IMG/VR virus record: IMGVR_UViG_3300001533_001295
Span: 1-64,000 of that record
Origin: a virus
Strand: one strand, 5' to 3'
Length of the DNA stretch: 64,000 nucleotides
Both the position numbers and the translations under genes were made by a program. Shown here one piece after another: positions 11,104-61,478 of this stretch (positions within the stretch are counted from its first letter, which is position 1; each line of letters opens with the position of its first letter). A model generated the notes under the pieces. That model had not been told where the DNA came from and did no database searches. It was given only the letters and a program-made list of their open reading frames with translations.

Positions 11104-11132
11104 CTTAATTATTTAACATTTTGCGCTATATT
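11104..11132 (+). promoter_or_regulatory. Candidate phage promoter, copy 1 of a conserved 28-bp element
   Basis: Starts CTTAATTATT and ends TTTTGCGCTATAT, 28 bases in all. The same element with identical spacing occurs at 60265 and 60914. All three lie in intergenic DNA before + strand genes and are followed within 50-60 bases by a hairpin. The TATAT end could be a -10 box; no good -35 TTGACA is present. It could be recognised by the phage RNA polymerase, but that is inference. Confidence 0.5.
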
Positions 11133-11153
11133 TTAATGCGGTGTCGCTCTCAC

Positions 11154-11198: not shown

Positions 11199-11924
11199 GT
11201 GTATGAGTTAGGTGAGGTACCGAAAACTAAAGCTAACAGGAAGTTAGCGGCCATAATTCAAAAGGCCAAAAAGAAGCTTTTTAATAAAGCTATCTGCTAC
11301 CAAGGAAAAGACTTTTTCATAAAGATTTTTTACTCGGTAGAAAACAAGTTTTATTGTGTCATCGAAGAAGGTGAGACAATTAAAACTATCGACCTAGATT
11401 TAGCAAGCGTTGGCCCTAGAAAAATTTACGCTGTAAAAAGCGTAAAAAGTATTCCAGAAAAAAAGCTTGCTGATGTCGACAGATTAGTTAAAGAAAATAA
11501 TCGAATAAGCGCTTATTCGATTTCTGGAGAGTTTCTGTTTGCTTTTGCCCCAGAGGAGAAAGGAGCAAAACTGTATGATTTGGACGGCGTTGACTATGTA
11601 ACTCTAGAAGACTATTTCAAAGATAAACCTAGTTTCAACGCGGCTTGGCTATCTCAACGGTTCTTAAACATAAAAGCCGATTTCGGTCGGCTTAAAGTTT
11701 GGGTGCTAACTAGTAAGAATTACTTAGATCATAGCTACTTTGATCTAAGTAAAGCAGCGGATGTTACGGCGTTAGTTATATTAGTTACCTTAGGAAAGGG
11801 CAGAAAATTATGTGCACGGAATACGCCAGACAACTTGTCGCTGACTGGACCAACAGCGGCAACTCCCAAGCCGAAAAAATCTTCGTTTCGGTGGATAACA
11901 ACCAAGCTAATGAGCTGGTTGTAG
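11199..11924 (+). CDS. Unknown basic protein
   Basis: GTG 11199 has a strong AAAGGAG site 6 bases upstream. 241 residues, Lys-rich N-terminal helix, then beta-rich middle. The last ~38 residues (Pro/Lys/Ser-rich, ending near LMSWL) are encoded by DNA that also starts the next gene. No known domain. Confidence 0.65.
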   Translation: MYELGEVPKTKANRKLAAIIQKAKKKLFNKAICYQGKDFFIKIFYSVENKFYCVIEEGETIKTIDLDLASVGPRKIYAVKSVKSIPEKKLADVDRLVKENNRISAYSISGEFLFAFAPEEKGAKLYDLDGVDYVTLEDYFKDKPSFNAAWLSQRFLNIKADFGRLKVWVLTSKNYLDHSYFDLSKAADVTALVILVTLGKGRKLCARNTPDNLSLTGPTAATPKPKKSSFRWITTKLMSWL

Positions 11925-12877
11925 CTATATTCACCGAAGAAGAGATCTTCGGCGAGATTAGGAAACCCGGTAAGGGTTGGCTGTCCGTGAAAATGGACAA
12001 ACCTCTCTCTGGAAAACAGAGAAAGTTCTACCGGAATAACTGCATCATCAGCCCAGCTGATGGAGTTATGAAGGTAACTGAGGGTGAGATTGACTTCTCG
12101 TTCGAAGTGGCTGAGAGAGTATACTCAGTCACAAAGCCGATTGAGGCAGCTATCACAGAGAAAACCTCTGTTAAAAAAGGAGAGATAATCGTGAGATTCT
12201 CTAAAATTTTAGACATCGTAGAGGAGTACTACGATGGTAAGAATTTCAGCATAGATCCCCAGGCTGAAAAAACCAACACTGAGTCAGAACAGTTGCTGGA
12301 GCACATTTACAATGTTCTTCACAACGGTAAAGAACAGTTCGCTTACCGCTGGTACTACGTCCTTCCTTCAAACGCTTTGACGCCTGGGATGGCGTTAAAA
12401 CTGAAGGAAGAGAAAGCGCTGGAGGCTATCGAAGGCGGCCTGCCGGTCCGGGTGATGCACCGCTCTAGGTACATCACACATGCCGACGAAACGACCGTCC
12501 GGCTCAGGACTAAACACTACAAGGAAGTAGTTTTCGACAGCCGACTGGTATCTATAGACGTAGAGCCAGGGAGGCTGTACGAAGCCGGCGAGCAAGTAGG
12601 CCGGTTCGTCAGGAGTATGGAAGACCTCGACATCATTCAGTCTGACAAGCGCGCGTTAGAGCGCATTTCGGACTGTTACATGCTGGAGAATTCCATTTTC
12701 TCTGGGGACAAGGTTATGGTCCCTGCTCGATTGGCCTTTTCGAAAAAGATGGAGAATTTCGAAAAGGTGTTAGTAAAAGGAGAATCGTTGGGAAAAGGGC
12801 CGCTCCCTTTCAACGATGACGGCTATGTTGATTTCGGCGATGTCAGAGTGTTCAGGCACTCTAAGCTGAAAAAGTAA
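11810..12877 (+). CDS. Unknown beta-rich protein
   Basis: ATG 11810 is preceded by TTAGGAAAGG, a good ribosome site, which supports starting inside the previous gene (115-base overlap). 355 residues. There is an S-P-A-D-G-V segment near residue 82 and several strand-turn-strand units with G-E or G-D turns suggestive of barrel-sandwich folds. Base composition is slightly richer in G/C than its neighbours. Two hairpins follow, so this ends a transcription unit. Function unknown. Confidence 0.65.
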   Translation: MCTEYARQLVADWTNSGNSQAEKIFVSVDNNQANELVVAIFTEEEIFGEIRKPGKGWLSVKMDKPLSGKQRKFYRNNCIISPADGVMKVTEGEIDFSFEVAERVYSVTKPIEAAITEKTSVKKGEIIVRFSKILDIVEEYYDGKNFSIDPQAEKTNTESEQLLEHIYNVLHNGKEQFAYRWYYVLPSNALTPGMALKLKEEKALEAIEGGLPVRVMHRSRYITHADETTVRLRTKHYKEVVFDSRLVSIDVEPGRLYEAGEQVGRFVRSMEDLDIIQSDKRALERISDCYMLENSIFSGDKVMVPARLAFSKKMENFEKVLVKGESLGKGPLPFNDDGYVDFGDVRVFRHSKLKK

Positions 12878-12945
12878 GCACTACAAAAAAGTGCTTACTT
12901 AGTGTAAAGTAGGCGGAGAAGTTAACCTTCTCCGCCTACTTTTTA
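12872..12945 (+). terminator. Tandem hairpins, the second an intrinsic terminator
   Basis: First hairpin 12872-12900 (AAGTAAGCACT / AGTGCTTACTT) has no T run. The second at 12907-12941 (AGTAGGCGGAGAAG / CTTCTCCGCCTACT) is followed by TTTTT and is a strong terminator. Together they separate the unknown gene upstream from the small pre-portal genes. Confidence 0.75.
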
Positions 12946-27516: not shown

Positions 27517-28186
27517 AAGATTAGTTAACCCTAATCTTTTCAGCTATACCGACGCACCTGATTCGCCCAAGATTAAATTATCGGCACTGACCGACTCAGC
27601 AAATAAGAAAACAGCCAGCGATTTTTTAAATTTTACAACTAACCCATCAGCCTACTTATCTGAGCTAGGCAGAAGTCTAACTTCTTCTGGCGGCAAAGGT
27701 TTAACCGACAGTTCTCTTTTCTTGCCGGCGGCACTACTGGCTGGTTCAGCTGGTTTAGGCGGAGGTTACTACGCTACTAATAAGTTACTTAATAAACTTA
27801 GGGAAACCGCAAGAAATAAAGAACTAGCTAAAGCTGAGCTAGAGTTTGAAGCAGCTTTAGCTGAGTCGGCTAAAACAGCTAGTAATAAAAATTGTCTCTT
27901 TGATAACACGTCTAGGATAGTTAACGTTTTAGATAAGGTAGCAGACGGTGGTTTAGTGTCTCCAGGCGTCTCGCATGCTGCTAGGAACATAGTAGGTTTG
28001 TATTTAACTGCAGCGTTGGCTTTAGGTGGAGTTGGAGCTTATGGAAGCTACAAATCCAACAAGGCTAAATCTAAATCAAAAGCTATTGAGCGTGCTCAAT
28101 TAGAGCGACTATCTCAAATGAGTCAAAGACAGTATCCAGCTATATACGCAGAGCCAGGTGTATCCGCAGATGATTCAGAACAATGA
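27221..28186 (+). CDS. Unknown membrane-active protein upstream of RNA polymerase
   Basis: 321 residues from ATG 27221. A basic N-terminal helix, hydrophobic Gly/Ala segment near 45-60, Lys/Arg-rich stretch, two further hydrophobic segments (about 165-185 and 255-275). Ala/Lys/Ser-rich composition with K-T-A strings shared by several other genes of this phage. Its start lies 296 bases inside another open frame and its end overlaps the polymerase start by 29 bases. Probably a virion-internal protein. Confidence 0.55.
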   Translation: MKTELLNSIKKKTANTASFENAVSQIQNLRSSAMPEERQKFLLNLLLATGAAGAGIAGLSHLQSLNKRQTSAKKPHISEVRVELFGQEKDKRQKSNRRKRLVNPNLFSYTDAPDSPKIKLSALTDSANKKTASDFLNFTTNPSAYLSELGRSLTSSGGKGLTDSSLFLPAALLAGSAGLGGGYYATNKLLNKLRETARNKELAKAELEFEAALAESAKTASNKNCLFDNTSRIVNVLDKVADGGLVSPGVSHAARNIVGLYLTAALALGGVGAYGSYKSNKAKSKSKAIERAQLERLSQMSQRQYPAIYAEPGVSADDSEQ

Positions 28187-31100
28187 TAACGAAGACATCG
28201 CGCTTACTTTAAACCAACCTGCTAAGCCTTTAGTTAGTTATCGAGCTGTAGACGACGCAGAAGTTCTGCGTGAAAACGTATATCAAAAAGCGTTAAATGC
28301 GGCTAAGTCTATACAGCCGCTGCAGTACGGTAAGTTTCAGCTAGCTCTAACTGACGTAGACTATGAGGACTCTCCTCAACCTACCAAGAGAGATCAGACC
28401 ACAGCTTTACTTGGGCGTAATAGTATAACTCGCCGGCTGAGAGGTACTTGGTCTCTGCAAGATACTCAGACCGGTGAGACGGTTGATCAGCGTAAGCAGA
28501 TCATAGCTAACGTGCCGCACGTTTTACATGACGGAAGTATCGTCATGCGCGGTACTAGGTATGCCTCCGGTATTCAACAGCGTCTTAGGCCTGGCGTTTA
28601 TACTCGTGTACGTAAAAGCGGTGAGCTAGAAGCTCACGTTAACGCTAAGGTAGGTACAGGTCCCAGCCACAGGTACGTCTTGGAGCCTGAGACAGGTAGG
28701 TTTTTACTTAATATTGGTAACAGTAAGATACCTTTGTCTAATTTATTAGACGTACTAGGAGTAGATAGAAAACGTGTCGAAGACGTCTGGGGCAAAGAAC
28801 TCACCGCCGTAAACTACGGTAAGCAGGATCCTAAAGCCTTAAATAAACTGTACGACAAGTTTGTCCCTAATAGGCTTAGAAACAAAGACGACCTCAGTAA
28901 CTCTGAGGCTATGCGTCAGAAAATTTCTGATGTATTTAATAACATCGGCTTAGATCAAGGTGTATTGAGCCAGACTGTTAATTTACCTACAGAGCATCTA
29001 AGCCCTGAGGTAATTCTAGCTGCGACGAGTAAGATACTTGAGATATCTAAGCAGCAAGAAGATAAGGACGACCGAGATCATCCAGGCTTCGCAACATTCC
29101 ACGATCTATCTGATCTGATCGCTGAAAGAATTAGCAACGATCACGGCGGCGTCAGACGCCAGTTGATGTACAAGATAGCTCAAAAAGGCAACTTAGCTAA
29201 TCTTCCGTCAGGTTATCTAGACAAGCAAATAAATAGCGTAATATTCGGTTCAGGTCTTGCTGCAGCTGTAGAAGAAACCAACCCGGCCGACATACTAGAT
29301 AGAATAACTAAAGTAACTAGGTACGGTGAGGGTGGTTTACCCTCTACGCAATCAACTCCGTCTGAAGCTAGAAATGTAAATCTAGGTCAGTTCGGCTTCA
29401 TAGATCCTGTGCGAACGGCTGAGTCGCTTAGAGTTGGTGTAGACGTTAACGTAGCAAATCCTACGTTCATAGGTAGCGATAATAAGCTCTACGCTAATTT
29501 TATAAACCTAGGAAACGGTCAAACAGAGTTACACTCGCCTGACGAGTTATTTAACTCTTCTTTAGTTATAGGTCCAAGCTCTATAGAAGGTTGGGACTCG
29601 GCTGTAGTAGGCGGCAAATTACAACTTGTAAGGCAGGGGGAAGGTGATTTTAAGTTACCGTCCTATGACAACGCCTTTAATATATTAAGCCAAATACTTC
29701 CTATGAAGTCGGCGTCGTTCGCTCAGCGTCTATCTATGGGCGCTAGAATGTCCCAGCAGGCTTTACCTGTGGAAGGAGCTGAAGCTCCTTTAGTGCAAGC
29801 AGCTGTGCCAGGAACAGGTGGCGCGGAGAGTTATGAGTCTAGGATAGGTACCAAGCTGGGAGCAATCAGGGCTAAAGATAGAGGCCGGGTTCTAGCTGTA
29901 ACTGATGACTATATTGAGGTCGCTTACCCAAACGGCAGTGTAGTAAAAGAAGATTTAGACTACTACAGACCTACCGCTCGTAAGTCGTTCATACACAACA
30001 CGCCGCTAGTTCAACCGGGCGATATTGTTGAGCCAGGCCAGATTTTAGCTAAGAGTAATTTTACAGACGACCAAGGCTCTTTGGCTTTTGGTAAGAACGT
30101 TAGAACAGCTCTTATACCTTGGGGTGAAAACTGGGAAGACGCTATCATCTTTAGCCAGCGCATGGCTAACAGTATGAGGTTAAACCAAGCTTATAAAAGC
30201 CATTTTGAAATAACAGATAAAGACGAGGTAGGTAAAAAGCCGTTCGTATCTGTTTTTGCTTCAAAGTACAACAAAGACATTTTAGACACGCTTGACGATA
30301 ATGGCGTAGTCAAGCCGGGCACGGTAGTTAAAAAAGGCGATCCGCTTATTTTAGCTATACGTGAGACAGACATGACTGGCAACCGAGTACATAAAAAGCA
30401 AGCTAAGTCTTACTCAGATGCTAGTGTTACTTGGGACCACAACCATGAGGGCTTGGTAACACATATAGCTGACTCAGGCAAAGGCTTCAGCGTTATGGTG
30501 ACTACCAGTAAGCCACTTGAAGAAGCAGACAAGATTGCAGGCTTATACGGTAATAAAGGTACGGTTAGAATTCTGCCTGATGCTCAGATGCCTGTGGCTG
30601 AGGATGGTGAAATTATAGACGCGCTCATATCTCCTTTGGCGGTTATATCTAGAGGTAACTCGTCTTTCCCTTTAACGATGCTACTAGGTAAAGTCGCAGC
30701 CAAGACTGGTAAGTCTTATAAAATTGAAGACTTTACCGGCCAAGACTTCACTCAACTGGTCAAAGAAGAGTTAGGTAAAAATAAGCTTAACGCTACAGAG
30801 ACGGTAACCGACCCTAACACAGGCAGGCAGATACCTGGTGTTCTTGTTGGTAATTCTTATTTAATGGCCTTACATCACTCAGCTGAGGCTAAGTCGTCAG
30901 CTAGAAGTATTGGCTCTTACTCGGCTTCCGGAGAACCAGCTAGAGGCACTAAAGGTCAGGCTAAGCGAGTATCGGGCCAGGAACTAGCTGCACATATGGC
31001 TCAAGGAGCTTATAAGTACAGCAGAGAATCTTCGTTGCTTAGAGGAAGACGTAACGATGACTTCTGGTCGGCTTATATGGGTGGTCACAATATAGAATTG

Positions 31101-32576
31101 CCTCAAGTTAATGAAGTATATGAGGGATTTTTAGACCGACTTAAAGGTATAGGTATAAACCCGGTAAAGTCAGGCGAAGACACTCAGCTTATGGCTATGA
31201 CCGACAACGATGTTAGAGAGCTGGCCGGCAGTAAACGAGTGACAGTACCTGACACTGTTAACATGTTTAAGGATCTTCAGCCTATAAAAGGCGGTTTAAT
31301 GGATCCTGCGATATTTGGTGAAGGCGATAAATTTGCGGCTTTTGATTTACCTGAAGCTCTACCTAATCCAGTATTTGAAGAGCCTTTGCGCAAGCTACTC
31401 GGTGTAACTGAGAAGCAATTTAGAGGCATTATTTCGGGTACAGAAGAGTTAGGTAAGTTTGGCTCAGGACCAGATGCTCTACATAGCTACCTTAAGAACT
31501 TAAACGTAGACGATGAGATTAAGCGCGCTAGACAAGAAATAGCTGGCACTAAGAAAACAGCTAGAGACGCAGCTGTTAAGCGCTTGCGTTATCTAAAGAT
31601 GTTCGAGCGCACTGGCGTTAAGCCTGAAGAGCTTATGGTAAGTGTTGTGCCGGTTATTCCTCCCAATCTTAGACCTATATCTCGCATAGGTAATAAGGGA
31701 TCGGTAGCTGTCTCTGACTCTAACTATTTATATAGAGAGTTAATGTTAGCTGCTGAGAACTTAGGAGAGATGAAACAGTTTTCATCTGACTTAAGTAAGG
31801 AGCGTTTGGCTACGTATGACGCACATAAAGCTCTAGTTGGTTTAACTGATCCTCAAAGCCGAGAGCTGAGGTCTAAAAAAGTAAAAGGTCTTATTAAAGA
31901 GATAATCGGAGACTCACCTAAGACCGGCATAGTTCAGCGCCGGCTTTTATCTACCAACGTCGACAACGTCACTAGAGGCGTCTTGGTGCCTGACACTAGT
32001 CTTAAAATGGGTCAGGTAGGTGTTCCGGTAACTCAGGCCTTAACCTCTTACTCTAATTATGTAATTAGAGATTTAGTTCAAAGCGGTATGCCTAGGGTAG
32101 AAGCTTTAGAGTCAGTTAAGAATAAATCTAAGGAAGCTATACAGGCTCTACAGAGAGTGATTAAAGATAGACCGGTTGTTCTTAGTAGAGCGCCAGTACT
32201 ACATAGGTACGGTAATATCGCCCTAGAGCCAGTCTTGGTGTCGGGCGATGGTATCAGGTTAAACCCTTTCGTATATAAAGGACTCGGAGCTGACAACGAC
32301 GGTGACGCTGTTAATATGCACGTCCCTCACAGCGACGAAGTCGTAAGAGAGGTTAGACAAAGACTCTCTCCGGCCAGTATGCTTATCCACCACCAGGATA
32401 AAAAGACTCCGGCTTTTTCTGTTAGCCAAGATCATCTTCTTGGGCTATATTACGCTTCTACAAAACGCAATGACCGCAAACGAACTAAATATTTTAGTTC
32501 CGTTACTGACGCGGTTGCCGCATTTAAGCGCGGCGAGCTAAACGTAGATGATCCTGTTAAGATCAGCGAATCTTAA
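28158..32576 (+). CDS. RNA polymerase beta subunit fused to the N-terminal half of beta-prime
   Basis: 1472 residues (GTG 28158 or ATG 28170). Beta part: M-R-G-T-R-Y-A-S-G near residue 135; K-I-A-G-L-Y-G-N-K-G near 790 matching beta KMAGRHGNKG; P-L-A-V-I-S-R-G-N following it; C-terminal K-R-V-S-G-Q-E-L matching KxRxGEME near 945. Beta-prime part from about 1030: V-V-P-V-I-P-P-N-L-R-P (LPVxPPDLRP) and R-A-P-V-L-H-R, then the metal-binding loop A-D-N-D-G-D near 1377-1382 (NADFDGD in bacteria), keeping all three Asp. It stops shortly after S-Q-D-H-L-L-G-L-Y-Y; the rest of beta-prime is the gene at 52344. No zinc-ribbon Cys set of cellular beta-prime is visible. It would transcribe phage genes. 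Confidence 0.93.
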   Translation: MYPQMIQNNDNEDIALTLNQPAKPLVSYRAVDDAEVLRENVYQKALNAAKSIQPLQYGKFQLALTDVDYEDSPQPTKRDQTTALLGRNSITRRLRGTWSLQDTQTGETVDQRKQIIANVPHVLHDGSIVMRGTRYASGIQQRLRPGVYTRVRKSGELEAHVNAKVGTGPSHRYVLEPETGRFLLNIGNSKIPLSNLLDVLGVDRKRVEDVWGKELTAVNYGKQDPKALNKLYDKFVPNRLRNKDDLSNSEAMRQKISDVFNNIGLDQGVLSQTVNLPTEHLSPEVILAATSKILEISKQQEDKDDRDHPGFATFHDLSDLIAERISNDHGGVRRQLMYKIAQKGNLANLPSGYLDKQINSVIFGSGLAAAVEETNPADILDRITKVTRYGEGGLPSTQSTPSEARNVNLGQFGFIDPVRTAESLRVGVDVNVANPTFIGSDNKLYANFINLGNGQTELHSPDELFNSSLVIGPSSIEGWDSAVVGGKLQLVRQGEGDFKLPSYDNAFNILSQILPMKSASFAQRLSMGARMSQQALPVEGAEAPLVQAAVPGTGGAESYESRIGTKLGAIRAKDRGRVLAVTDDYIEVAYPNGSVVKEDLDYYRPTARKSFIHNTPLVQPGDIVEPGQILAKSNFTDDQGSLAFGKNVRTALIPWGENWEDAIIFSQRMANSMRLNQAYKSHFEITDKDEVGKKPFVSVFASKYNKDILDTLDDNGVVKPGTVVKKGDPLILAIRETDMTGNRVHKKQAKSYSDASVTWDHNHEGLVTHIADSGKGFSVMVTTSKPLEEADKIAGLYGNKGTVRILPDAQMPVAEDGEIIDALISPLAVISRGNSSFPLTMLLGKVAAKTGKSYKIEDFTGQDFTQLVKEELGKNKLNATETVTDPNTGRQIPGVLVGNSYLMALHHSAEAKSSARSIGSYSASGEPARGTKGQAKRVSGQELAAHMAQGAYKYSRESSLLRGRRNDDFWSAYMGGHNIELPQVNEVYEGFLDRLKGIGINPVKSGEDTQLMAMTDNDVRELAGSKRVTVPDTVNMFKDLQPIKGGLMDPAIFGEGDKFAAFDLPEALPNPVFEEPLRKLLGVTEKQFRGIISGTEELGKFGSGPDALHSYLKNLNVDDEIKRARQEIAGTKKTARDAAVKRLRYLKMFERTGVKPEELMVSVVPVIPPNLRPISRIGNKGSVAVSDSNYLYRELMLAAENLGEMKQFSSDLSKERLATYDAHKALVGLTDPQSRELRSKKVKGLIKEIIGDSPKTGIVQRRLLSTNVDNVTRGVLVPDTSLKMGQVGVPVTQALTSYSNYVIRDLVQSGMPRVEALESVKNKSKEAIQALQRVIKDRPVVLSRAPVLHRYGNIALEPVLVSGDGIRLNPFVYKGLGADNDGDAVNMHVPHSDEVVREVRQRLSPASMLIHHQDKKTPAFSVSQDHLLGLYYASTKRNDRKRTKYFSSVTDAVAAFKRGELNVDDPVKISES

Positions 32577-35579: not shown

Positions 35580-36356
35580 CAGTGTTGACTCTTGTGTTCT
35601 TGGTTATGGTGTACTTTACTAAGTAACTAAGAACCATCGAAAGAAGTCGGATGTCGAAATCCAAAAGTAAGGTGAGAATGTTGAATGGGTATAGAGTTAT
35701 CTACGACCCAACTCATCCAAAAGCTATGACCAGTGAAAATTGGAACGGATATGTGTACGAACATGTAGCTGTTGCTCAAAATTCACTAGGAAGAAGCTTA
35801 GAAAGTGATGAAGTAGTTCATCACTTAGATGGGAACCGCGAGAACAACAGGTCTTCGAATCTGCTTGTTTTGGAGCGGAGTCAGCATGCAAAACTTCACA
35901 GATGGATGGAGACAAATGGTGCCTTTACATTGAAAGATGTAAATGAGAATGGGGTGAATTCAGGGAAACCTAAATCTATTTCGACATGTAAAGTTTGTGG
36001 AAAAACTCTACAAGCAAAGCAAAAAGGTGCTTGCTCACTTAAATGCAAGCGTATCCTTTCCAGGAAGGTTGAAAGACCGGACAGGCCGACGCTAGAAATC
36101 GACATGCAAAATCTATCAATGGTAGCAATTGGTAGTAAGTATGGAGTTTCAGATAATGCGATCAGGAAGTGGATAAAATCTTACGAAATAGACACGGCAA
36201 TCCTGAGCCAAGCTTCTGGTACACCAGAAGAAGGTGCAGAGACTAGCGGAGAGGTAAAGTCCTCTTAATTACCGCCTAGAGCGCCCCACACCCAAACGAG
36301 TAATGTCGTGGGTGGTGAGATAGTCCAGGGAGAAAATGAAAATTTTCACAAACCAG
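35580..36356 (+). mobile_element. Group I intron with HNH endonuclease, in the tRNA-Ile2 anticodon loop
   Basis: 777 bases inserted after U36 and ending in G (CCAG). Core candidates: GCAGAGACTAG at 36235-36245 and GAGATAGTCC at 36317-36326. The reading frame inside runs into the core region, a known arrangement. Sequence around the ORF differs from the Arg intron, so the two introns are not recent copies of each other. Confidence 0.8.
35651..36268 (+). CDS. HNH homing endonuclease in the tRNA-Ile2 intron
   Basis: 205 residues from ATG 35651 (AAAGAAG upstream). HNH: E-V-V-H-H-L-D-G-N near 57-65, N-N-R-S-S-N-L-L-V-L, H-A-K-L-H. Then zinc-ribbon Cys (C-K-V-C … C-S-L-K-C) and a C-terminal helix-turn-helix (S-K-Y-G-V-S-D-N-A-I-R-K-W) for DNA recognition. 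Same family as the nuclease in the tRNA-Arg intron but with the extra HTH. Confidence 0.85.
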   Translation: MSKSKSKVRMLNGYRVIYDPTHPKAMTSENWNGYVYEHVAVAQNSLGRSLESDEVVHHLDGNRENNRSSNLLVLERSQHAKLHRWMETNGAFTLKDVNENGVNSGKPKSISTCKVCGKTLQAKQKGACSLKCKRILSRKVERPDRPTLEIDMQNLSMVAIGSKYGVSDNAIRKWIKSYEIDTAILSQASGTPEEGAETSGEVKSS

Positions 36357-40367: not shown

Positions 40368-43300
40368 ATGTCCGACTTCTACTGGCTTAACAATGACTCT
40401 AGGCTTTTTCTATCCCGAGGATATTTAGCCGAGGGTCAAGAAGCTGAGGATAGGCTTCTAGATATTAGTAAGAACGCTGAGAAGACGTTAGGCCCTAACT
40501 TCGCCGGCTTTGCTGATAAGTTCTATGGTTATTTAGCTAGAGGCTTCTACTCCCTAGCTACGCCGGTCTGGACTAATTACGGAAACGATCGCGGACTTCC
40601 TGTGTCCTGCGTTGTTGGTGATACATGGATAAATACAAAATATAATGGAGGCAAACTAGCTAAAGATATAGAAATAGGAGACGAGGTTTTAACTCATAAA
40701 GGGCAATATAAAAAAGTAACAGATGTAATTTTAACAAAAAATCAAAAAGATATTTATAAAATTAAAATATCTAGCAGAATGACACCACTATACATCACTG
40801 GAAACCATTTGGTTTTAACAAATTTAGGATGGGTTAGATGTGATGAGTTAAATTCAGATTACCATCTTGTCGCTATTAACGGAGATATAGAATATATTGA
40901 GCAAGATTACGAAATAGATCTAAAACCATTTTGTAATTTTGAATCAACTATAATTGATGGTAAAATATGTAAATTAATTACAGACAATATAAAGTATAAA
41001 AAAAGATCAAAGAACGGAGTATATGTTGATTACTACGCTACACCCAAAGAAAAAATACAAGTAGATAACGACCTAGCTTGGGCTTTGGGGTTGTGGTTTG
41101 CCGAGGGATCCCTTAGCACTAGAGGTGGCTCACCGTGCGGAATTCGTATAACGTATAATACTAAAGACGAAAAAGAATTGGGGGATAAATGGTTCCATAT
41201 AATGTCTGAAAAATTCGGCTTAAAAGGTAACATCTATGACAGTGTGTGTAATAGAAATGGAAAATCTACAAGCTGGAGTAACGCAAATATTAACTCTAAT
41301 ATTATAGGTAATTTTTTCGAATCTTTTGGTAAAGGATGTAAAGAAAAAACAATACCTCAATGGATTATTGATCTACCCAAAGAAAAACTTGATCTTTTCT
41401 TAAAAGGCTTGTTGGATGGGGATGGTACAAAAACTAAAAGCAATTCCAACAGAATAACCGTAGCAAATCCTAAAATGCTGCTTCAAATATACCAGATAGG
41501 ACTAAAACTTGGTTTGCAGATGTCGCTGCAAATGCAAGAAAAAGCAGGAAAATTAGCAACAACTACACATACTTATACATGTATCTTTATATCTTATGAA
41601 ACAGATAATAGAAGATCTAGCAGATTTGCTATTAAATTTCATGATGGTTTATATTACTCGAAAATTAGAGAAATATTAAAAACAGATAAATCAGAAGATG
41701 TATATGATTTTACTGTTGAAGATGATCATTCTTTTAGCGCTGCTGGTGTCCTACTTCATAATTGCTTCAACTCACATTTGTCGGACAAAATGCAGTCTAT
41801 ACTATATAAGACTGCTGAAGTCGGCATGATGAGTAAGTACGGCGGCGGCACATCTGGTTACTTCGGCGACATACGTCCTAGAGGCGCGCCTATAAGCGTA
41901 GGCGGCACTTCTAGCGGAGCCGTACACTTTATGGAGTTGTTCGATAAAGTGGCAGATACGGTGAACCAGGGCAACTCTAGGCGCGGATCTTTCGCTGCCT
42001 ACTTACCTGTAAGCCATCCCGACATACTAGAGTTTTTGCGCATAAGATCTGACGGCCATCCTATTCAGAACATGTCGATAGGTGTAACTATCACCGACGA
42101 CTGGATGAGAGATATGATTGCCGGAGACAAAGACAAGCGTAAGGTATGGGCTAAGATAATTGAGAAGAGATTTGAGAGCGGTTATCCTTATGTCGCTTTT
42201 ATAGACAACATTAATAAAAACAATCCTAAAGTTTATAAAGATAAAAATTTAAGCGTAAAATCACAAAATCTTTGCGTTGCTGGAGACCAGCGGGTTGTAA
42301 CTAGCCGAGGTATGCTTACAGCTAAAGAGCTGTATGAGATCGGAGGTAACTTAACACTGTTTGACAACGATAAGATTGTTAATTCAGGGCCTATGTCTCT
42401 TGTAGAACGTATGGCCGATGTCTATGAAATTGAGCTAGATAACGGCCTCACACATAAAGTTACTAGCTACCATAAAGTTAAAGTCAGGACGTCTGGCACT
42501 TTGGATACGGTAGTTAAGACGGCCGACGTAGCTTGCTCAGATTTAAACGTAGGCGATTTAGTAGCTGTTCAGACTAATAAAGGTCTGTTTGGTGACGTCA
42601 ATAAAGAAGATGAAGCTTTTCTACTAGGCTTGCACCAATCAGAAACTGAAGATAATACGTTAACTGAAGTCCCAGACTGGATCTGGGAGTCAAACGAAGA
42701 TACGCAGAGAGCATATATAAGAGGCCTACTACTTCCAAATATTGGAAGAGGGCTGCACCACCGGTCAAAGGACTTCCTAAAAGACTTACAACTCGTACTA
42801 GTGAATTTGGGAATTAACTGTGCTTTAAAATTAAGAGAAGCTGAAGGGGTTTATACACTTTATAGTTTAGACGATGATTTAGATAACGCCTTCCATAAAA
42901 TTAAGTCTATTAATTACGTAGGCCAAGAAGACGTCTACTGCGTGACTGTAGACTCAGCAGAGCACCATTGGGTCTGCAACGGAGTCGTAACACATAACTG
43001 CGCGGAAATATCGCTCCATTCAGATGAAAAATACTCTTTTGTATGCGTGTTATCTTCTATAAACTTAGAACACTGGGATGCTATAAAGTCTACAGACGCG
43101 GTCGAGACGCTAATATATTTCCTCGACACGGTAAACGAGGAGTTCGTCCGTAAGTCTAAGGATCTTCCTTTTATGGAACATCCTTATAATTTCGCTAAAG
43201 ACCATAGGGCTCTAGGTCTTGGGGTTTTAGGCTGGCACTCGTATCTTCAGTCTAAGATGATACCTTTCGATAGCTTTGAAGCTAATCTAGAGAACGTAAG

Positions 43301-43901
43301 CATCTTTAAGACTATATCTGAGCGCTGTAAAGCAGCTACGACTAAGCTAGCGGATGTTCTAGGTGAGCCAGATATTCTAAAAGGTTACGGCGCGCGTAAT
43401 ACGCACACAATGGCGATAGCTCCTACGACATCTTCGTCTTTTATATTAGGTCAGGTATCACCTAGCATAGAGCCACTCAATAGTAACTACTTTGTTAAGC
43501 GTTTAGCCAAAGGTAACTTCACTTATAGAAATCCTTATCTAGTGGATTTACTAAAGGCTAAAAATAAGGATGACGCTAACACGTGGCACAGCATCCTAAC
43601 GCACGGCGGATCTGTACAGCATTTAGACTTTATGGACGACCATGAGAAGAACGTCTTTAAGACCTTCTCAGAAATTAGTCCTAAGCAAGTCATAATTCAA
43701 GCTGCCCAACGCCAGCAGCACATCGATCAAGGTCAGAGCTTAAACATCATGATACCGCCTGGTACTAAGGCTAAGTTAGTAAGTGATCTTATGATCTTTG
43801 CTTGGGAGCAAGGAGTAAAGAGTCTCTACTATCAGCGAAGCGCTAATCCATCTCAGCAGTTGTCTAGAGAGATACTAAACTGCTCTGCATGCGAGTCGTA
43901 G
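40368..43901 (+). CDS. nrdA: Ribonucleotide reductase large subunit NrdA, with two inteins
   Basis: 1177 residues (about 550 without the inteins). Class I alpha subunit that reduces NDPs or NTPs. Visible sites: redox Cys after L-P-V-S (E. coli C225 region), N-L-C-A-E-I with the radical Cys (C439 region), the partner Cys in S-F-V-C-V-L-S-S-I-N-L, M-A-I-A-P-T near the end, two Tyr near Y-Y-Q-R, and the C-terminal pair C-S-A-C. The N-terminal ATP cone is absent. The first two cysteines are each the +1 residue of an intein. The end overlaps the first R-x-T-G-P gene by 13 bases. Confidence 0.92.
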   Translation: MSDFYWLNNDSRLFLSRGYLAEGQEAEDRLLDISKNAEKTLGPNFAGFADKFYGYLARGFYSLATPVWTNYGNDRGLPVSCVVGDTWINTKYNGGKLAKDIEIGDEVLTHKGQYKKVTDVILTKNQKDIYKIKISSRMTPLYITGNHLVLTNLGWVRCDELNSDYHLVAINGDIEYIEQDYEIDLKPFCNFESTIIDGKICKLITDNIKYKKRSKNGVYVDYYATPKEKIQVDNDLAWALGLWFAEGSLSTRGGSPCGIRITYNTKDEKELGDKWFHIMSEKFGLKGNIYDSVCNRNGKSTSWSNANINSNIIGNFFESFGKGCKEKTIPQWIIDLPKEKLDLFLKGLLDGDGTKTKSNSNRITVANPKMLLQIYQIGLKLGLQMSLQMQEKAGKLATTTHTYTCIFISYETDNRRSSRFAIKFHDGLYYSKIREILKTDKSEDVYDFTVEDDHSFSAAGVLLHNCFNSHLSDKMQSILYKTAEVGMMSKYGGGTSGYFGDIRPRGAPISVGGTSSGAVHFMELFDKVADTVNQGNSRRGSFAAYLPVSHPDILEFLRIRSDGHPIQNMSIGVTITDDWMRDMIAGDKDKRKVWAKIIEKRFESGYPYVAFIDNINKNNPKVYKDKNLSVKSQNLCVAGDQRVVTSRGMLTAKELYEIGGNLTLFDNDKIVNSGPMSLVERMADVYEIELDNGLTHKVTSYHKVKVRTSGTLDTVVKTADVACSDLNVGDLVAVQTNKGLFGDVNKEDEAFLLGLHQSETEDNTLTEVPDWIWESNEDTQRAYIRGLLLPNIGRGLHHRSKDFLKDLQLVLVNLGINCALKLREAEGVYTLYSLDDDLDNAFHKIKSINYVGQEDVYCVTVDSAEHHWVCNGVVTHNCAEISLHSDEKYSFVCVLSSINLEHWDAIKSTDAVETLIYFLDTVNEEFVRKSKDLPFMEHPYNFAKDHRALGLGVLGWHSYLQSKMIPFDSFEANLENVSIFKTISERCKAATTKLADVLGEPDILKGYGARNTHTMAIAPTTSSSFILGQVSPSIEPLNSNYFVKRLAKGNFTYRNPYLVDLLKAKNKDDANTWHSILTHGGSVQHLDFMDDHEKNVFKTFSEISPKQVIIQAAQRQQHIDQGQSLNIMIPPGTKAKLVSDLMIFAWEQGVKSLYYQRSANPSQQLSREILNCSACES
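40608..41762 (+). mobile_element. NrdA intein 1 with LAGLIDADG endonuclease
   Basis: 385 residues from C-V-V-G-D-T-W-I to L-L-H-N, then host Cys. Contains both LAGLIDADG motifs, G-L-W-F-A-E-G-S and L-K-G-L-L-D-G-D-G-T, so the homing nuclease looks intact. Codon and base use is clearly more A/T-rich than nrdA itself, pointing to recent arrival. Insertion is immediately before the redox Cys. Confidence 0.92.
42273..42998 (+). mobile_element. NrdA intein 2 with decayed endonuclease
   Basis: 242 residues from C-V-A-G-D-Q-R-V to V-V-T-H-N, then host Cys. Block B is V-T-S-Y-H-K. Remnants of LAGLIDADG helices (F-L-L-G-L-H-Q-S, Y-I-R-G-L-L-L-P) lack the acidic residues, so the nuclease is probably dead while splicing blocks are intact. 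Base use matches nrdA, suggesting an older resident. Insertion is immediately before the thiyl-radical Cys. Confidence 0.9.
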
Positions 43902-44092
43902 TAAACACGCAAGAAACTGGCTTAACGTCTTTAACTAGTTACGTTGAAGTCATAAGACACACAGGCCCCGTTACTATATTTAGTAACGGGGTTTTGTTTC
44001 AACATAACCCGCTAGAAGATGCGTACAATTTTATAGACACCAGAAATAAAGTTTTTTACAGAAGCATACTTTATGAAGTACGGCCCAAATGA
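43889..44092 (+). CDS. R-x-T-G-P array member 1
   Basis: 67 residues, ATG inside the last codons of nrdA. Signature R-H-T-G-P at residues 23-27. The codons of and after the signature also form a strong terminator hairpin (43966-43995), so this member overlaps the end of the nrd transcript. Confidence 0.6.
   Translation: MRVVVNTQETGLTSLTSYVEVIRHTGPVTIFSNGVLFQHNPLEDAYNFIDTRNKVFYRSILYEVRPK
43966..43999 (+). terminator. Intrinsic terminator inside array member 1
   Basis: CCCCGTTACTA, loop TATT, TAGTAACGGGG, then TTTTGTTT. Perfect 11-bp stem about 65 bases after the nrdA stop. It should end most nrd transcripts, and it lies within the first array gene. Confidence 0.75.
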
Positions 44093-44110
44093 TGAGATAT
44101 CTTTAAACCT

Positions 44111-44765: not shown

Positions 44766-44772
44766 GGATTGA

Positions 44773-45423: not shown

Positions 45424-45447
45424 ATTTACACATTGATAAGAAAAATT

Positions 45448-46099: not shown

Positions 46100-46101
46100 C
46101 G

Positions 46102-47214: not shown

Positions 47215-47244
47215 TCGTTGCTTCTTCTAAGGTAGCGCGCTTGC

Positions 47245-52105: not shown

Positions 52106-52351
52106 GTGAAAAATAATTTATCAGCTGGCATTTTCTCTTTAGGCAGCGATCACGGTAAAGTAATATCTGGCGATGTTATCGTGATCTTCGACCAGTATGG
52201 GTCGCCTTTGGTAGGCGTAGATAAAGTAGCAAACAAGCTAACTCTTATCTGCACCCACGATAAGCCTGATGAAATGCGTCAGTTTTTAGCTAGGCATAAC
52301 ATACCAACTAATGTACCTAATGTAACTTCGGTTAAGATACCTCATGGCTGA
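52106..52351 (+). CDS. Small unknown protein before RNA polymerase beta-prime C
   Basis: 81 residues from GTG 52106. Mixed strands, no motif. Overlaps the polymerase gene by 8 bases, so the two are coupled. Confidence 0.6.
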   Translation: MKNNLSAGIFSLGSDHGKVISGDVIVIFDQYGSPLVGVDKVANKLTLICTHDKPDEMRQFLARHNIPTNVPNVTSVKIPHG

Positions 52352-54662
52352 TCTAACGTTTGGGCAATTAATTTTATCTAAAATTTTGCCGCCGGACGTT
52401 TATAGGCCGGGGCAATCTATAGATAAAAAATCTATAAATACTATTCTAGAAGACGTAGCTAGAAAGTATCCCGAACGTTACGAGGACATATCTTTCCAGC
52501 TACTTCAGCTAGGTAAAGACAGCGGTATAGCTCAAGGCGGCGCCAGCTTTGATATAGATGATCTTCTAACACCTCCGAAGGCTAAAATTAGGAGAGATAA
52601 ATTAAAAGACAAAATCAAGCTAGTATTAGAGACAGCTCCACCTGAAGCTAGAAATCAGCTGATAGTTGATATGCTTCAAAAAGCCAGAGATACTGACGTA
52701 GGTGAAGTTCACTCTGAGGCTGAGCAGCTCAAAAATAATTTAGCTATGCAGCTGAAAGGAGCTGGCCGAGGTAACCCTGTCAATTTAGCTAGATTAATAG
52801 CTAGCGATCTAATTTATTCGGACTCAGAAGGAAGTCCTATACCTGTACCTATTCTGCGTAGCTACAGCCAAGGTTTGACGCCCGGCGAGCATCTCTCCAG
52901 TGTGTTTAGTTCTAGGGGAGGTTTGATAGTTACCAAGCTAGGAGTAGGTGAGTCCGGGTATCTATCTAAGATGCTATCAGCAGGGGCTCACAGGCTGGCT
53001 GTGACCGACGTAGACGCCCCTGAAGATAGGCAGTGGCTAGCTAGCGCTAAAGGCTTGCCTGTAGATACCACTGACAACGACAACGTAGGATCCCTGCTGG
53101 CTTACGATGCAGGCCCTTATAAGAGGAACACGGTACTTACGCCTAAGATACTAGAAGATCTTAAAGATAAAGGCTACGACCAAATAGCTGTTAGAAGTCC
53201 TTTGACGACTACTGAGCCGGAAGGTGGCGTGTACGCTAGAGATGTTGGTTTAGATGAAAACCATAAACTAGTAGCTGTTGGCTCAATACCAGGAATACTA
53301 GCTGCTTCTGCTTTATCTGAGCCTTTAACACAAGGAGCGCTCAGCTGCTTATCAGTTGGTACTTTAGTCAGAATGGCGGACAAGTCTGAAAAACCTATTG
53401 AAGAAGTTGATATAGGGGAGTGGGTACTGGGCGCAGACGAGTTGGGAAGAGTGTTCCCTACACTTGTCACAAATATATGGGATCAAGGCAAGCAGCCGGT
53501 ATATAAGTACACTTTTTCTAACTTACCCAACTTAGCGCCAGTTGAAGTAGAATGTACCGAAGAGCATGTCGTACTTTTATCGGACGGCATGAACAATTCT
53601 AAAGAGCCTATCGGTCGTCGCTGCTCTAATAAGACTAACGATATTTGCGCTGTTTACGTAAGTAAAACCGACAAAGCTTACAGCGACTGCTGCGCACCGC
53701 TTAGCTGCGAGTATGTGGGTGAGCGGCAGTGCTACGACATTGAGGTGTCTAATCCGTCTTCGCTATTCGTGCTAGCTAGTGGCTTAGTAGTTAGTAACTC
53801 GAAGCACGGTGGAGCTACAGCTGGCGGAAACATATCCGGCTTTGCTCTTATAGAGAAGCTAGTTAATACACCTAAAGAGTTTAGAGAAGCAGCTACTTAT
53901 GCGTCTAAAGACGGCCAGGTTTCTGCGGTTAAACCTGCGCCGCAAGGTGGTAATTATGTGATTATCAGCGGAGAGAAGCATTACATACCTGCTTCTGCTA
54001 ATATAAATGTTAAGCTCGGACAGTCAGTTGAAGCTGGCGACAGACTCAGCTCTGGTCCAATTCACCCGCATTTAGCTGTCAAGTACAAAGGCTTAGGCGA
54101 AGGAGCTCGGCAGGTTACAAGTCAAATCGTTGAATCTATGCGAGATAGCGGTCTTAAAGTTCACCGCAGAAATGTCGAGCTTGTAGTCAGAGGGCTTCTC
54201 GACCGTGTACGCCTAACGTCTGAATACGGCGATTACGTTCCTGATGACGTAGTGCCTTACAGCCGTATAGAGAGTTCTTATCAGCCAAGGCATGGGTTTA
54301 AACGCCTACCATCTGCTCAAGCAGCCAATAAGTATCTAGAAACTCCTACACTGCATTACACAATTGGAACTAGAATTACTCCTTCGGTTATAAAGAATTT
54401 AAATCGATTTAAGATTGACAAAGTAGACGTACATGATGAACCGCCGCCATTTGAACCAGAAGTGGTCCGTGCGGTAGATTTATTACAGACGGATCCAGAT
54501 TGGCTCACTAGGCATTACGGTACAGGACTTCAAAAAGGTTTACTCAAAGCTGTCCATGAAGGCGACGTATCTTCTACAGATAGTACAAGTTTTGTTCCGG
54601 CTAGGGCTAAAGCTGTAGGTTTTGGTGACAATGAGCCTTTTAAGCTAAAACCACAGGTATAA
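52344..54662 (+). CDS. RNA polymerase beta-prime, C-terminal half, with mini-intein
   Basis: 772 residues (621 after splicing), continuing beta-prime where the gene at 28158 stops. N-terminal F-G-Q-L-I and S-F-D-I-D-D-L align with bacterial VGRALL and VGIDDM. R-G-G-L…S-G-Y-L-S-K-M-L (about 191-211) matches the bridge-helix start NSGYLTRRL. G-I-L-A-A-S-A-L-S-E-P-L-T-Q (about 317-330) matches the trigger-loop approach VIAAQSIGEPGTQ. The intein follows four residues later. After it K-H-G-G-A and the C-terminal jaw/clamp part. It would assemble with the fused beta/beta-prime N chain. Confidence 0.92.
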   Translation: MADLTFGQLILSKILPPDVYRPGQSIDKKSINTILEDVARKYPERYEDISFQLLQLGKDSGIAQGGASFDIDDLLTPPKAKIRRDKLKDKIKLVLETAPPEARNQLIVDMLQKARDTDVGEVHSEAEQLKNNLAMQLKGAGRGNPVNLARLIASDLIYSDSEGSPIPVPILRSYSQGLTPGEHLSSVFSSRGGLIVTKLGVGESGYLSKMLSAGAHRLAVTDVDAPEDRQWLASAKGLPVDTTDNDNVGSLLAYDAGPYKRNTVLTPKILEDLKDKGYDQIAVRSPLTTTEPEGGVYARDVGLDENHKLVAVGSIPGILAASALSEPLTQGALSCLSVGTLVRMADKSEKPIEEVDIGEWVLGADELGRVFPTLVTNIWDQGKQPVYKYTFSNLPNLAPVEVECTEEHVVLLSDGMNNSKEPIGRRCSNKTNDICAVYVSKTDKAYSDCCAPLSCEYVGERQCYDIEVSNPSSLFVLASGLVVSNSKHGGATAGGNISGFALIEKLVNTPKEFREAATYASKDGQVSAVKPAPQGGNYVIISGEKHYIPASANINVKLGQSVEAGDRLSSGPIHPHLAVKYKGLGEGARQVTSQIVESMRDSGLKVHRRNVELVVRGLLDRVRLTSEYGDYVPDDVVPYSRIESSYQPRHGFKRLPSAQAANKYLETPTLHYTIGTRITPSVIKNLNRFKIDKVDVHDEPPPFEPEVVRAVDLLQTDPDWLTRHYGTGLQKGLLKAVHEGDVSSTDSTSFVPARAKAVGFGDNEPFKLKPQV
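53346..53798 (+). other. Mini-intein in the beta-prime trigger loop
   Basis: 151 residues from C-L-S-V-G-T-L-V to L-V-V-S-N, followed by Ser. Block B-like V-E-C-T-E-E-H-V. No LAGLIDADG or HNH motif, so a minimal splicing domain. Penultimate residue is Ser instead of His. Host junction is Q-G-A-L-S / S-K-H-G-G, which corresponds to the E. coli trigger loop near M932-T934. Confidence 0.88.
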
Positions 54663-60005: not shown

Positions 60006-60269
60006 ATGAAAATTGATGACGCTTTGATTCAAGACCTAGTTAACAATCGTCTGACGGGTCAACAAGAACAAGAGCTTTTTAAAGCTATCCTAAAAGATGA
60101 GAAGCTTAAGGATAAGCTAATAAAAATGCTAAGTGAAAATAATAAGATGGCCTGCGCACCAAAGGAGCCGACTAGCTTTTCGTCGCTCTCTAAAAGCGGC
60201 AAACCTATGACACACATTTCTGAGACGATTACAAAAAGGCAACGAGCTAAGCTCGGTAAAACGTCTTAA
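60006..60269 (+). CDS. Small charged unknown protein
   Basis: 87 residues from ATG 60006 with GAGGTAAAC upstream. Helical N-terminal half, Lys/Ser-rich C-terminal half. Its stop codon lies inside copy 2 of the 28-bp element. Confidence 0.6.
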   Translation: MKIDDALIQDLVNNRLTGQQEQELFKAILKDEKLKDKLIKMLSENNKMACAPKEPTSFSSLSKSGKPMTHISETITKRQRAKLGKTS

Positions 60270-60294
60270 TTATTAGCGTTTTTGCGCTATATGT
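60265..60294 (+). promoter_or_regulatory. Candidate phage promoter, copy 2 of the 28-bp element
   Basis: CTTAATTATT … TTTTTGCGCTATAT with the same spacing as the copies at 11104 and 60914. It is followed by a small hairpin (GTAGCC/GGCTAC, 60298-60314) and then a terminator before the lipoprotein gene at 60393. Confidence 0.55.
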
Positions 60295-60322
60295 AGATGT
60301 AGCCAATTAGGCTACACAAACG

Positions 60323-60361
60323 GAGCCCCGTAGATTTGTGATTGGTCTACGGGGCTCTTTT
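60323..60361 (+). terminator. Intrinsic terminator in the leader of lipoprotein gene 1
   Basis: GAGCCCCGTAGA / TCTACGGGGCTC, 12-bp perfect stem, then TTTT. It separates the promoter-like element from the gene start, so it either ends upstream transcription or controls entry into the gene. Confidence 0.8.
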
Positions 60362-60392: not shown

Positions 60393-60851
60393 ATGACGAC
60401 TAAAATATTACTGTCGATCATTAGTTTGTTACTCTTCGTCGTCGGCTGCAAAACTGACTACAGCGATTTAGAGACTCGCCCCCAGACAAGTCTCCAAGTC
60501 TCATTCGTCACCAATAAAGAAGGGATCGAAATGGAGAATATGGTGATTCTCCGCTACGGGCACCGAGAAAAACTCGTAGACAAGTCAAAGAACTTTAAGA
60601 CATGGGACGACCTTTTCCCTTTCTACTTGAAGCAGGCTTTAGAAGAGGCTGCCCTAGAATACCAAGTTACCCACTTGGAGATCGACGCCAATACAGTTGG
60701 CGTAAGGGTTAACCTTTGGATCAAAAACGCACTGCAGGACGTATTTGGCGTCCAAGAAGTCAAAGAAGTTCCTTACGAGCGCCGCTGGCCTGTGAGAATG
60801 TCAGATATTGAAGGCGTTCGGTGGCAACCTTCAACGAAATTGCCGTACTGA
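60393..60851 (+). CDS. Lipoprotein 1
   Basis: 152 residues from ATG 60393, which has AGGAGAT upstream and so beats the longer start at 60342. Signal II sequence: basic M-T-T-K, hydrophobic core, lipobox V-V-G-C with Cys at residue 19. Mature part is charged, beta/alpha, no known domain. Base composition is more G/C-rich than most of the phage. An outer-surface or periplasmic anchored protein, possibly superinfection exclusion. Confidence 0.7.
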   Translation: MTTKILLSIISLLLFVVGCKTDYSDLETRPQTSLQVSFVTNKEGIEMENMVILRYGHREKLVDKSKNFKTWDDLFPFYLKQALEEAALEYQVTHLEIDANTVGVRVNLWIKNALQDVFGVQEVKEVPYERRWPVRMSDIEGVRWQPSTKLPY

Positions 60852-60855: not shown

Positions 60856-60898
60856 AAAAACCCTGATTACGTTTTACGTGTAATTGGGGTTTTTTTTA
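60856..60898 (+). terminator. Intrinsic terminator after lipoprotein gene 1
   Basis: AAAACCCTGATTAC … GTGTAATTGGGGTT followed by eight T. Almost the same sequence recurs after lipoprotein gene 2 (61433-61478), so the two cassettes share ends as well as starts. Confidence 0.8.
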
Positions 60899-60913: not shown

Positions 60914-60943
60914 CTTAATTATTAGCATTTTTGCGCTATATAT
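60914..60943 (+). promoter_or_regulatory. Candidate phage promoter, copy 3 of the 28-bp element
   Basis: CTTAATTATT … TTTTTGCGCTATAT. The leader after it (60944-61020) can fold into nested stems (GTACTA…TAGTAC, CATAC…GTATG and CTGCCC…GGGCAG) without a T run before the lipoprotein gene 2 start. Confidence 0.55.
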
Positions 60944-61034
60944 AGGTGTAGTACTAGCTGCCCGTAGTACTTCACATACTCAACACGTTGTTGTGTATGT
61001 AATCAAATGGGCAGTGTCTTAAAGGAGACATATT

Positions 61035-61430
61035 ATGACTTACAACAAATCCCTAATGGTCTTGGTTTTGGTTGTTGGATCCTCACTCGTTGGCTGTGAT
61101 AACGCGGCCAAGGAATTGACCGCAACTTTAAGCAGCTCCGTGGTCACGACGGGTGATAAACTTATAAGCCGAGAGGATCAGGCCTTGGCGGCTGGCGAAG
61201 CCGTCATAAAGGGACTCTTGGGGGGCCATCCGAACGAAGCCCAACACCATCTGTTGGAGCGGGCTTTAAGGCCCGTGCTCGAGAATCAAATCGCCAACGA
61301 GTCAAACCTTTTCGGAGGCTCACTCTATGATAATAGTTTGAGACTCCAGCAGCGGATTTTAAAGTTGGTTAGGTCTACGGACCTAATCGACCAGCTCAAA
61401 AAGCTGGCGGACGAGCCAGCTGCTGAGTAG
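61035..61430 (+). CDS. Lipoprotein 2
   Basis: 131 residues, ATG 61035 with AAAGGAGAC upstream. Signal II: M-T-Y-N-K, hydrophobic core, lipobox L-V-G-C with Cys at residue 21. Mature part is helical and charged. Not similar in sequence to lipoprotein 1, but in a cassette with the same promoter-like element and terminator. Possible early-expressed, host-modifying protein. Confidence 0.7.
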   Translation: MTYNKSLMVLVLVVGSSLVGCDNAAKELTATLSSSVVTTGDKLISREDQALAAGEAVIKGLLGGHPNEAQHHLLERALRPVLENQIANESNLFGGSLYDNSLRLQQRILKLVRSTDLIDQLKKLADEPAAE

Positions 61431-61432
61431 CG

Positions 61433-61478
61433 ATAAAAACCCTGATTACACTTTACGTGTAATTGGGGTTTTTTTTAG
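61433..61478 (+). terminator. Intrinsic terminator after lipoprotein gene 2
   Basis: AAAACCCTGATTAC … GTGTAATTGGGGTT and a T run, near-identical to the copy at 60856-60898. Confidence 0.8.

What the first reader, a model, noticed from the sequence alone, without database searches (positions are those of the whole stretch)
11104..11132. 28-bp element repeated three times with identical spacing
CTTAATTATT, about eight less conserved bases, then TTTTGCGCTATAT occur at 11104, 60265 and 60914, each in intergenic DNA before a + strand gene with a strong ribosome site. It is a good candidate for a phage-specific promoter, possibly read by the split RNA polymerase or by the host early in infection.
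Basis: partly seen in the sequence, partly recalled or inferred. Interest (0 to 1): 0.6.

Follow-up and report, generated by a model that had tools for sequence, protein, structure and literature searches.

The report
Triplicate promoter-like element in giant phage
A virus that carries its own multi-part RNA polymerase has the same 28-letter DNA signal three times, each just before a gene; it is most probably the 'start copying here' signal of that virus, a new example of a known kind, with an unusual 'stop'-like hairpin right behind it in two of the three places.

Summary
CTTAATTATT-N5-TTTTGCGCTATAT (spacer 5, not about 8) occurs exactly three times, identical at 23/23 fixed positions, at 11104, 60265 and 60914, all on + and all before an ORF. 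Shuffles give none; the next best site in the 84,772-base record has six or more mismatches.

Best reading: a phage promoter. TATAT sits at the -10 place and CTTAAT/TTAATT 16-17 bp upstream. Six bases after TATAT all copies have G (predicted +1), as in AR9 early promoters (consensus-6N-G). Copies 2 and 3 head cassettes of element, lipoprotein gene and near-identical terminator. Between element and gene, copy 1 has a strong terminator hairpin and copy 2 a weaker one.

The fit to E. coli sigma70 is poor, which points to a dedicated factor. Relatives encode one multisubunit RNA polymerase plus a sigma70-like protein, but that gene would lie outside this record, and the promoter motifs of two distant relatives do not match the element. 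Which polymerase reads it is unresolved. No copy was found in viral or genome collections. No transcript data exist, so promoter function is inferred. New member of a known kind.

The parts
11104..11131 (+). Element copy 1 (CTTAATTATT TAACA TTTTGCGCTATAT)
11138..11138 (+). Predicted transcription start (G, six bases after TATAT)
   Evidence: TATAT-6N-G in all three copies; inference from the AR9 early promoter layout (PMC5312081)
11154..11183 (+). Intrinsic-terminator hairpin with T7 tract between element and ORF; would end the RNA about 45 nt after the predicted start
   Evidence: Listed by the terminator scan; z -3.0 for the leader
11199..11924 (+). ORF of unknown function, RBS AAAGGAG, GTG start; overlapped at its end by ORF 11810-12877
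   Evidence: no Pfam or PHROGs match
12906..12944 (+). Terminator hairpin plus T tract closing unit 1, followed by AGCTATTGG
60265..60292 (+). Element copy 2 (CTTAATTATT AGCGT TTTTGCGCTATAT)
60299..60299 (+). Predicted transcription start (G)
   Evidence: inference
60298..60316 (+). Hairpin GTAGCC-AATTA-GGCTAC at the predicted 5' end of the RNA
60322..60361 (+). 15-pair hairpin followed by a short T run: terminator-like, weaker than copy 1 (not called by the terminator scan)
   Evidence: Fold z -6.7; absent
60393..60851 (+). Lipoprotein ORF A (lipobox LLFVVGC), 152 aa
   Evidence: no relative found
60856..60897 (+). Terminator closing unit 2; 91% identical over 56 nt to the one closing unit 3
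   Evidence: Repeat D14; z -3.9
60914..60941 (+). Element copy 3 (CTTAATTATT AGCAT TTTTGCGCTATAT), directly behind the terminator of unit 2
60948..60948 (+). Predicted transcription start (G)
   Evidence: inference
60957..61015 (+). Structured leader (CTGCCC...GGGCAG enclosing an 11-pair hairpin), no T tract
   Evidence: z -3.6
61035..61430 (+). Lipoprotein ORF B (lipobox SSLVGC), 131 aa, unrelated to A
   Evidence: no relative found
61435..61476 (+). Terminator closing unit 3
28158..32576 (+). Phage RNA polymerase beta fused to the N-terminal part of beta' (D-N-D-G-D catalytic motif at residue 1379)
   Evidence: Rpb2_6 1.5e-42, Rpb1_2 5.5e-17
52344..54662 (+). Phage RNA polymerase beta' C-terminal part, interrupted by a Hint (intein-like) domain
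   Evidence: Rpb1_5 2.3e-10, Hint 4.9e-7

Best explanation
The element is the recognition site of one class of phage promoter. A transcription-initiation complex binds the bipartite site, CTTAATTATT at about -34 to -25 and TTTTGCGCTATAT at about -19 to -7, opens the TATAT region and starts RNA at the G six bases further on (11138, 60299, 60948). Each start serves a short unit: one or two genes closed by a terminator. In copy 3 the RNA leads straight into a lipoprotein gene through a structured leader. In copies 1 and 2 the RNA meets a hairpin within about 15-25 nt (a strong terminator in copy 1, a weaker terminator-like hairpin in copy 2), so full-length mRNA is probably a fraction of starts or needs an enzyme or factor that passes the hairpin. 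The most likely reader is the phage's own multisubunit RNA polymerase with a phage initiation factor of the sigma70 type, encoded in the part of the genome missing from this record. Shown: sequence, copy number, positions, geometry, terminators, polymerase genes, sigma-like protein in relatives.
For: Three copies with 23/23 fixed bases identical while spacer and flanks differ; never in shuffles. All before + ORFs, in the roughly 5% intergenic DNA. TATAT with CTTAAT/TTAATT 16-17 bp upstream; TG 6-7 nt after TATAT in all copies, i.e. TATAT-6N-G, the layout of AR9 early promoters (AAATATATATTAT-6N-G; also a conserved start 6 nt downstream in phiKZ and phiR1-37; PMC5312081). That paper notes that such promoters tolerate few deviations, which suits the lack of degenerate copies. 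Leaders from the predicted starts fold better than shuffles (z -3.0, -6.7, -3.6). Units 2 and 3 are element + different lipoprotein gene + shared terminator. Poor fit to E. coli sigma70 (8, 7, 7 of 12; not listed). Own RNA polymerase genes. Eight IMG/VR relatives carry a sigma70-like protein (Sigma70_r3 1.2e-9, r4 over cut-off, RpoD_Cterm 8.7e-10) about 20 kb beyond a gene that here lies 1.7 kb from the end of the record. Two named distant relatives with polymerase and sigma genes have over-represented -35/-10-type motifs before genes.
Against: No transcript data. Only three copies in 85 kb. Copies 1 and 2 are followed by hairpins that would end many transcripts, odd for a simple promoter. Matrices built from the D69 and Arash motifs do not pick out the element (ranks in the thousands), and no comparable repeated element was found in the IMG/VR relatives searched for motifs, so the sequence itself has no comparative support. 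No sigma-like gene in the 85 kb held.
Confidence: 0.68

Rival explanations
1. Promoter read by the host RNA polymerase (a host sigma whose consensus differs from E. coli sigma70, or sigma70 plus a phage activator) that serves moron-like cassettes independently of the phage programme.
For: -35/-10-like spacing; self-contained units of promoter, small lipoprotein gene and terminator look like morons, which are usually read by host polymerase (general knowledge); intrinsic terminators around the units.
Against: Only 7-8 of 12 sigma70 matches, a level met about 19-82 times per kb and strand in this genome; identity extends over the spacer, which sigma70 does not need; no copy of the element in the species-genome collection.
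Confidence: 0.2
2. A promoter-terminator module: the main products are short structured RNAs (about 45 and 63 nt), or the module is a loading site for an antitermination factor that lets polymerase pass the hairpin, as at Q-dependent late promoters of lambdoid phages.
For: Strong terminator about 16 nt behind the predicted start in copy 1 and a 15-pair hairpin about 23 nt behind it in copy 2; conserved bases between -10 and -35, where Q binds in lambda (general knowledge).
Against: Copy 3 has no T-tract terminator in its leader; copy 2 has only a short T run and is not called by the terminator scan; no Q-like protein identified; no Rfam family over its gathering score.
Confidence: 0.18
3. A protein-binding site that is not a promoter (operator, recombination or cassette-exchange boundary).
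For: Element and terminator are shared ends of units 2 and 3 with different genes between them, as expected of exchange by homologous recombination.
Against: Copy 1 lies 49 kb away without the shared terminator; no terminal repeats or target duplications seen around the copies; the position of TG relative to TATAT is constant.
Confidence: 0.08

Closest known systems
Early (virion RNA polymerase) promoters of phiKZ-related jumbo phages, e.g. AR9 AAATATATATTAT-6N-G
   Same: Highly conserved AT-rich block near -10, invariant G 6 nt downstream, in a phage with its own multisubunit RNA polymerase (PMC5312081, PMC7598289).
   Different: Here there is a second fully conserved block at about -34 to -25, a GCGC core and only three copies in 85 kb. 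The polymerase is one beta-beta'N fusion plus beta'C, with no second set detected in this record or in near-complete relatives.
Repeated promoter-like motifs of Vibrio phage D69 and Salmonella phage Arash (found here; no paper on Arash in the library)
   Same: Same spacing of two boxes before genes, in phages with a related RNA polymerase (29% identity) and sigma-like proteins.
   Different: Sequence TCAACA-N17-TATAAGTAANNTGTAA; matrices built from it do not find the element; 16 and 18 sites respectively were used at up to 2 mismatches.
Bacterial sigma70 promoters
   Same: TATAT at the -10 place, box 16-17 bp upstream.
   Different: Only 7-8 of 12 consensus bases; conservation across the spacer.
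Phage morons (own promoter, gene, terminator)
   Same: Units 2 and 3 have this anatomy around small lipoprotein genes.
   Different: Independent expression and host-polymerase use untested; no relatives of the two genes found.

Membership tests
phiKZ-type vRNAP early promoter | Extended AT-rich conserved block centred near -10 | tested here: met
   TTTTGCGCTATAT at about -19 to -7, identical in 3 of 3, though with a GCGC core
phiKZ-type vRNAP early promoter | Start at a conserved base 6 nt behind the block | tested here: inconclusive
   TATAT-6N-G in 3 of 3, but no mapped start
phiKZ-type vRNAP early promoter | Tens of copies (41 in AR9, 28 in phiKZ) | tested here: inconclusive
   3 in the 85 kb held; the record is probably under half of the genome
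phiKZ-type vRNAP early promoter | Two multisubunit polymerases, one of them in the virion | tested here: not met
   One set only in this record, four IMG/VR relatives of 194-205 kb, D69 and Arash; virion location not testable
Sigma70-type promoter (E. coli consensus) | Good match to TTGACA and TATAAT | tested here: not met
   8, 7, 7 of 12; not listed by the scans
D69/Arash repeated promoter motif | TATAAGTAANNTGTAA with upstream TCAACA | tested here: not met
   Matrix ranks 2,346 or worse of 169,464 positions
Moron cassette | Own promoter and terminator around one inserted gene | tested here: inconclusive
   Layout present in units 2 and 3; promoter unproven; no empty-site relative found
Any promoter | RNA 5' end at the predicted start | not testable with these tools
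   No transcript data for this uncultivated phage

The most novel reading that the evidence does not exclude
This phage group runs a multisubunit RNA polymerase of its own together with its own sigma70-family factor, and the element is the bipartite promoter of that holoenzyme, with leader hairpins that stop one polymerase (host) but not the other (phage) and so gate the cassettes. Reviews describe the two strategies as alternatives: polymerase-encoding jumbo phages without sigma, sigma-encoding ones without polymerase (PMC7824862, PMC7598289).
Probability: 0.25. Interest if true: 0.65.

Novelty: new member of a known kind. Interest (0 to 1): 0.4.

Why it matters
If it is the promoter of a phage polymerase with a sigma70-like partner, it gives a defined DNA target for reconstituting a third type of phage-encoded multisubunit transcription machine (one polymerase plus phage sigma), beside the phiKZ and AR9 enzymes, and a test of how leader terminators sort host from phage polymerase. 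Otherwise it is a useful annotation of a phage promoter class.

Tried and rejected
Fourth copy: TTTAATTAGCGTTACTACTGCGACGCTATAT at record position about 68077 (outside the window) has the boxes 3 bp further apart and its CGCTATA is part of a hairpin; not counted. Inverted repeat TAGCG...CGCTA across the element: loop length differs between copies and copy 3 folds no better than shuffles; rejected as the functional feature. Hit L105 in viral contigs: inside a coding region of an unrelated contig; chance. Exact and shortened element in viral contigs and genome contigs: nothing related. D69/Arash matrices applied to this genome: negative; an apparent likeness of TATATGTAGATGTAG to TATAAGTAANNTGTAA is therefore not used as evidence. 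De novo motif search in the IMG/VR relatives: no promoter-like repeat clearly above shuffles, only a terminator-linked motif. Relatives of the downstream genes: none. Rfam on the leaders: nothing near a gathering score.

Full report
OBSERVATION. The element is real. Its exact form is CTTAATTATT-N5-TTTTGCGCTATAT, at + 11104-11131, 60265-60292 and 60914-60941. Shuffles never give a match even with three mismatches; simulated order-4 Markov genomes never repeat such a pair. In the whole record of 84,772 bases nothing lies between 0 and 6 mismatches: there is no cloud of weaker copies. Spacer and flanks differ, so this is not a recent duplication of a long segment, although copies 2 and 3 share 38 bp at 92%.

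SURROUNDINGS. The record is an IMG/VR virus contig, probably a fragment of a roughly 200-kb phage. Its best relatives by the RNA polymerase beta' part are contigs of up to 205 kb at 46-49% identity, and the nearest named phages are Salmonella phage Arash and Vibrio phage D69 at about 29% in beta. Nearly all genes are on +. Intergenic DNA in gaps of 30 bases or more is about 5%, and all three copies lie in it or at its edge. Copy 1: ORF end, element, strong hairpin with T7, RBS, ORF 11199, ORF 11810, terminator at 12906-12944. Copy 2: ORF end overlapping the element, a hairpin at the predicted 5' end, a second 15-pair hairpin with a short T run, RBS, lipoprotein ORF 60393-60851, terminator. Copy 3: element directly behind that terminator, structured leader, RBS, a different lipoprotein ORF 61035-61430, and a terminator 91% identical to the previous one over 56 nt. 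Units 2 and 3 thus share both ends and differ in the gene.

GEOMETRY. TATAT stands where a -10 box stands, CTTAAT/TTAATT 16-17 bp upstream. Behind TATAT the six bases are TTTAAT, GTAGAT and ATAGGT, followed in all three by G. In AR9 the early promoter is AAATATATATTAT-6N-G with G as the start, and phiKZ and phiR1-37 also start 6 nt behind their conserved block (PMC5312081). The review PMC7598289 states that in each RNA-polymerase-encoding jumbo phage a conserved AT-rich motif centred near -10 can be located before presumed early operons. The element fits that description, but has in addition a second conserved block at about -34 to -25.

WHICH POLYMERASE. The E. coli sigma70 match is 8, 7 and 7 of 12, a level that occurs 19-82 times per kb and strand in this genome, and the conserved spacer suggests a dedicated reader. 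The phage has a beta-beta'N fusion (28158-32576, D-N-D-G-D motif) and a beta'C part (52344-54662, with a Hint domain). Only one such set is seen in this record, in four IMG/VR relatives of 194-205 kb, and in D69 and Arash. Eight IMG/VR relatives also have a 277-338-codon frame with weak Sigma70_r4 matches; four of these proteins were examined and belong to the sigma70 family (Sigma70_r3 1.2e-9, RpoD_Cterm 8.7e-10, solved sigma factors to 6.6e-6). It lies 19.9-20 kb beyond the orthologue of ORF 82768-83106 in G012, G013 and G007; in this record only 1.7 kb follow that ORF, so its absence here is expected. The D69 and Arash sigma annotations hold up, and these two phages carry over-represented motifs with a -35-like box 17 bp before TATAAG. 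But matrices from those motifs do not find the window's element, and the IMG/VR relatives gave no comparable motif. The layout is shared; the sequence is not. The assignment to the phage polymerase with a sigma partner is therefore an inference, and a non-canonical host sigma remains open.

MECHANISM. Most likely the element is a promoter that starts RNA at 11138, 60299 and 60948. The hairpins that follow within about 25 nt in copies 1 and 2 imply attenuation, a short RNA product, or readthrough by a polymerase or factor that ignores them. This is the least explained part.

NOVELTY. Promoter motifs of RNA-polymerase-encoding jumbo phages are a known kind; this sequence is new in the collections searched (records very near this phage may be left out of those collections). 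What could lift it above an ordinary new member is the coexistence of a phage multisubunit polymerase and a phage sigma70-like factor, which comparative surveys treat as alternatives (PMC7824862: no sigma factor in any group 1 phage). That point rests on the relatives, not on this record.

Noticed in passing
Relatives of the window's phage: L161-L167 (centre of each locus); also OQ632216.1 and OZ195729.1: Phages of this group encode both a multisubunit RNA polymerase and a sigma70-family protein, a combination that reviews of jumbo phages describe as alternatives.
   Followed up: partly
52344-54662: The RNA polymerase beta' C-terminal ORF carries an intein-like Hint insertion (CLSVGTLV...VVSN|S) between EPLTQGALS and SKHGGA, which looks like the trigger-loop region; the matching stretch in relatives is about 610 codons against 772 here.
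   Followed up: partly
12940, 38254, 60893, 61472, 83188 (last one beyond the window); relatives L111, L120, L125, L127, L139, L147, L149, L151: Terminator hairpins with their T tract are followed by a conserved AGCTATCAGC-like motif, in this record and in distant relatives; one instance (12940) resembles a relative's site (L127:13286) before a neighbouring orthologous gene, including the RBS. Could be a terminator extension or a promoter core.
   Followed up: partly
OQ632216.1 and OZ195729.1: Clear promoter-like motifs: GGTATAAGTAANNTGTAA in Salmonella phage Arash (18 sites at up to 2 mismatches) and TTATAAGTAATATGTA in Vibrio phage D69, with a TCAACA-like box 17 bp upstream; mainly on the - strand before genes.
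   Followed up: partly
40368-43901: Ribonucleotide reductase large subunit with intein splicing, Hint and LAGLIDADG homing-endonuclease domains.
   Followed up: no
35894-36348: Group I intron (Rfam RF00028, 68.8 bits) overlapping the end of an HNH-endonuclease ORF and followed by a tRNA-like 3' end (GGTTCGAATCC, 36372).
   Followed up: no
44000-50200: Run of more than 20 short ORFs of about 50-95 aa with recurring repeats such as TACACCGGTCCCTC (repeat families D3-D8): a possible expanded family of small proteins.
   Followed up: no
62900-63050: In-frame repeats coding for Asp-Pro-Glu/Thr-rich sequence at the end of ORF 62556-63053 (repeat D2).
   Followed up: no
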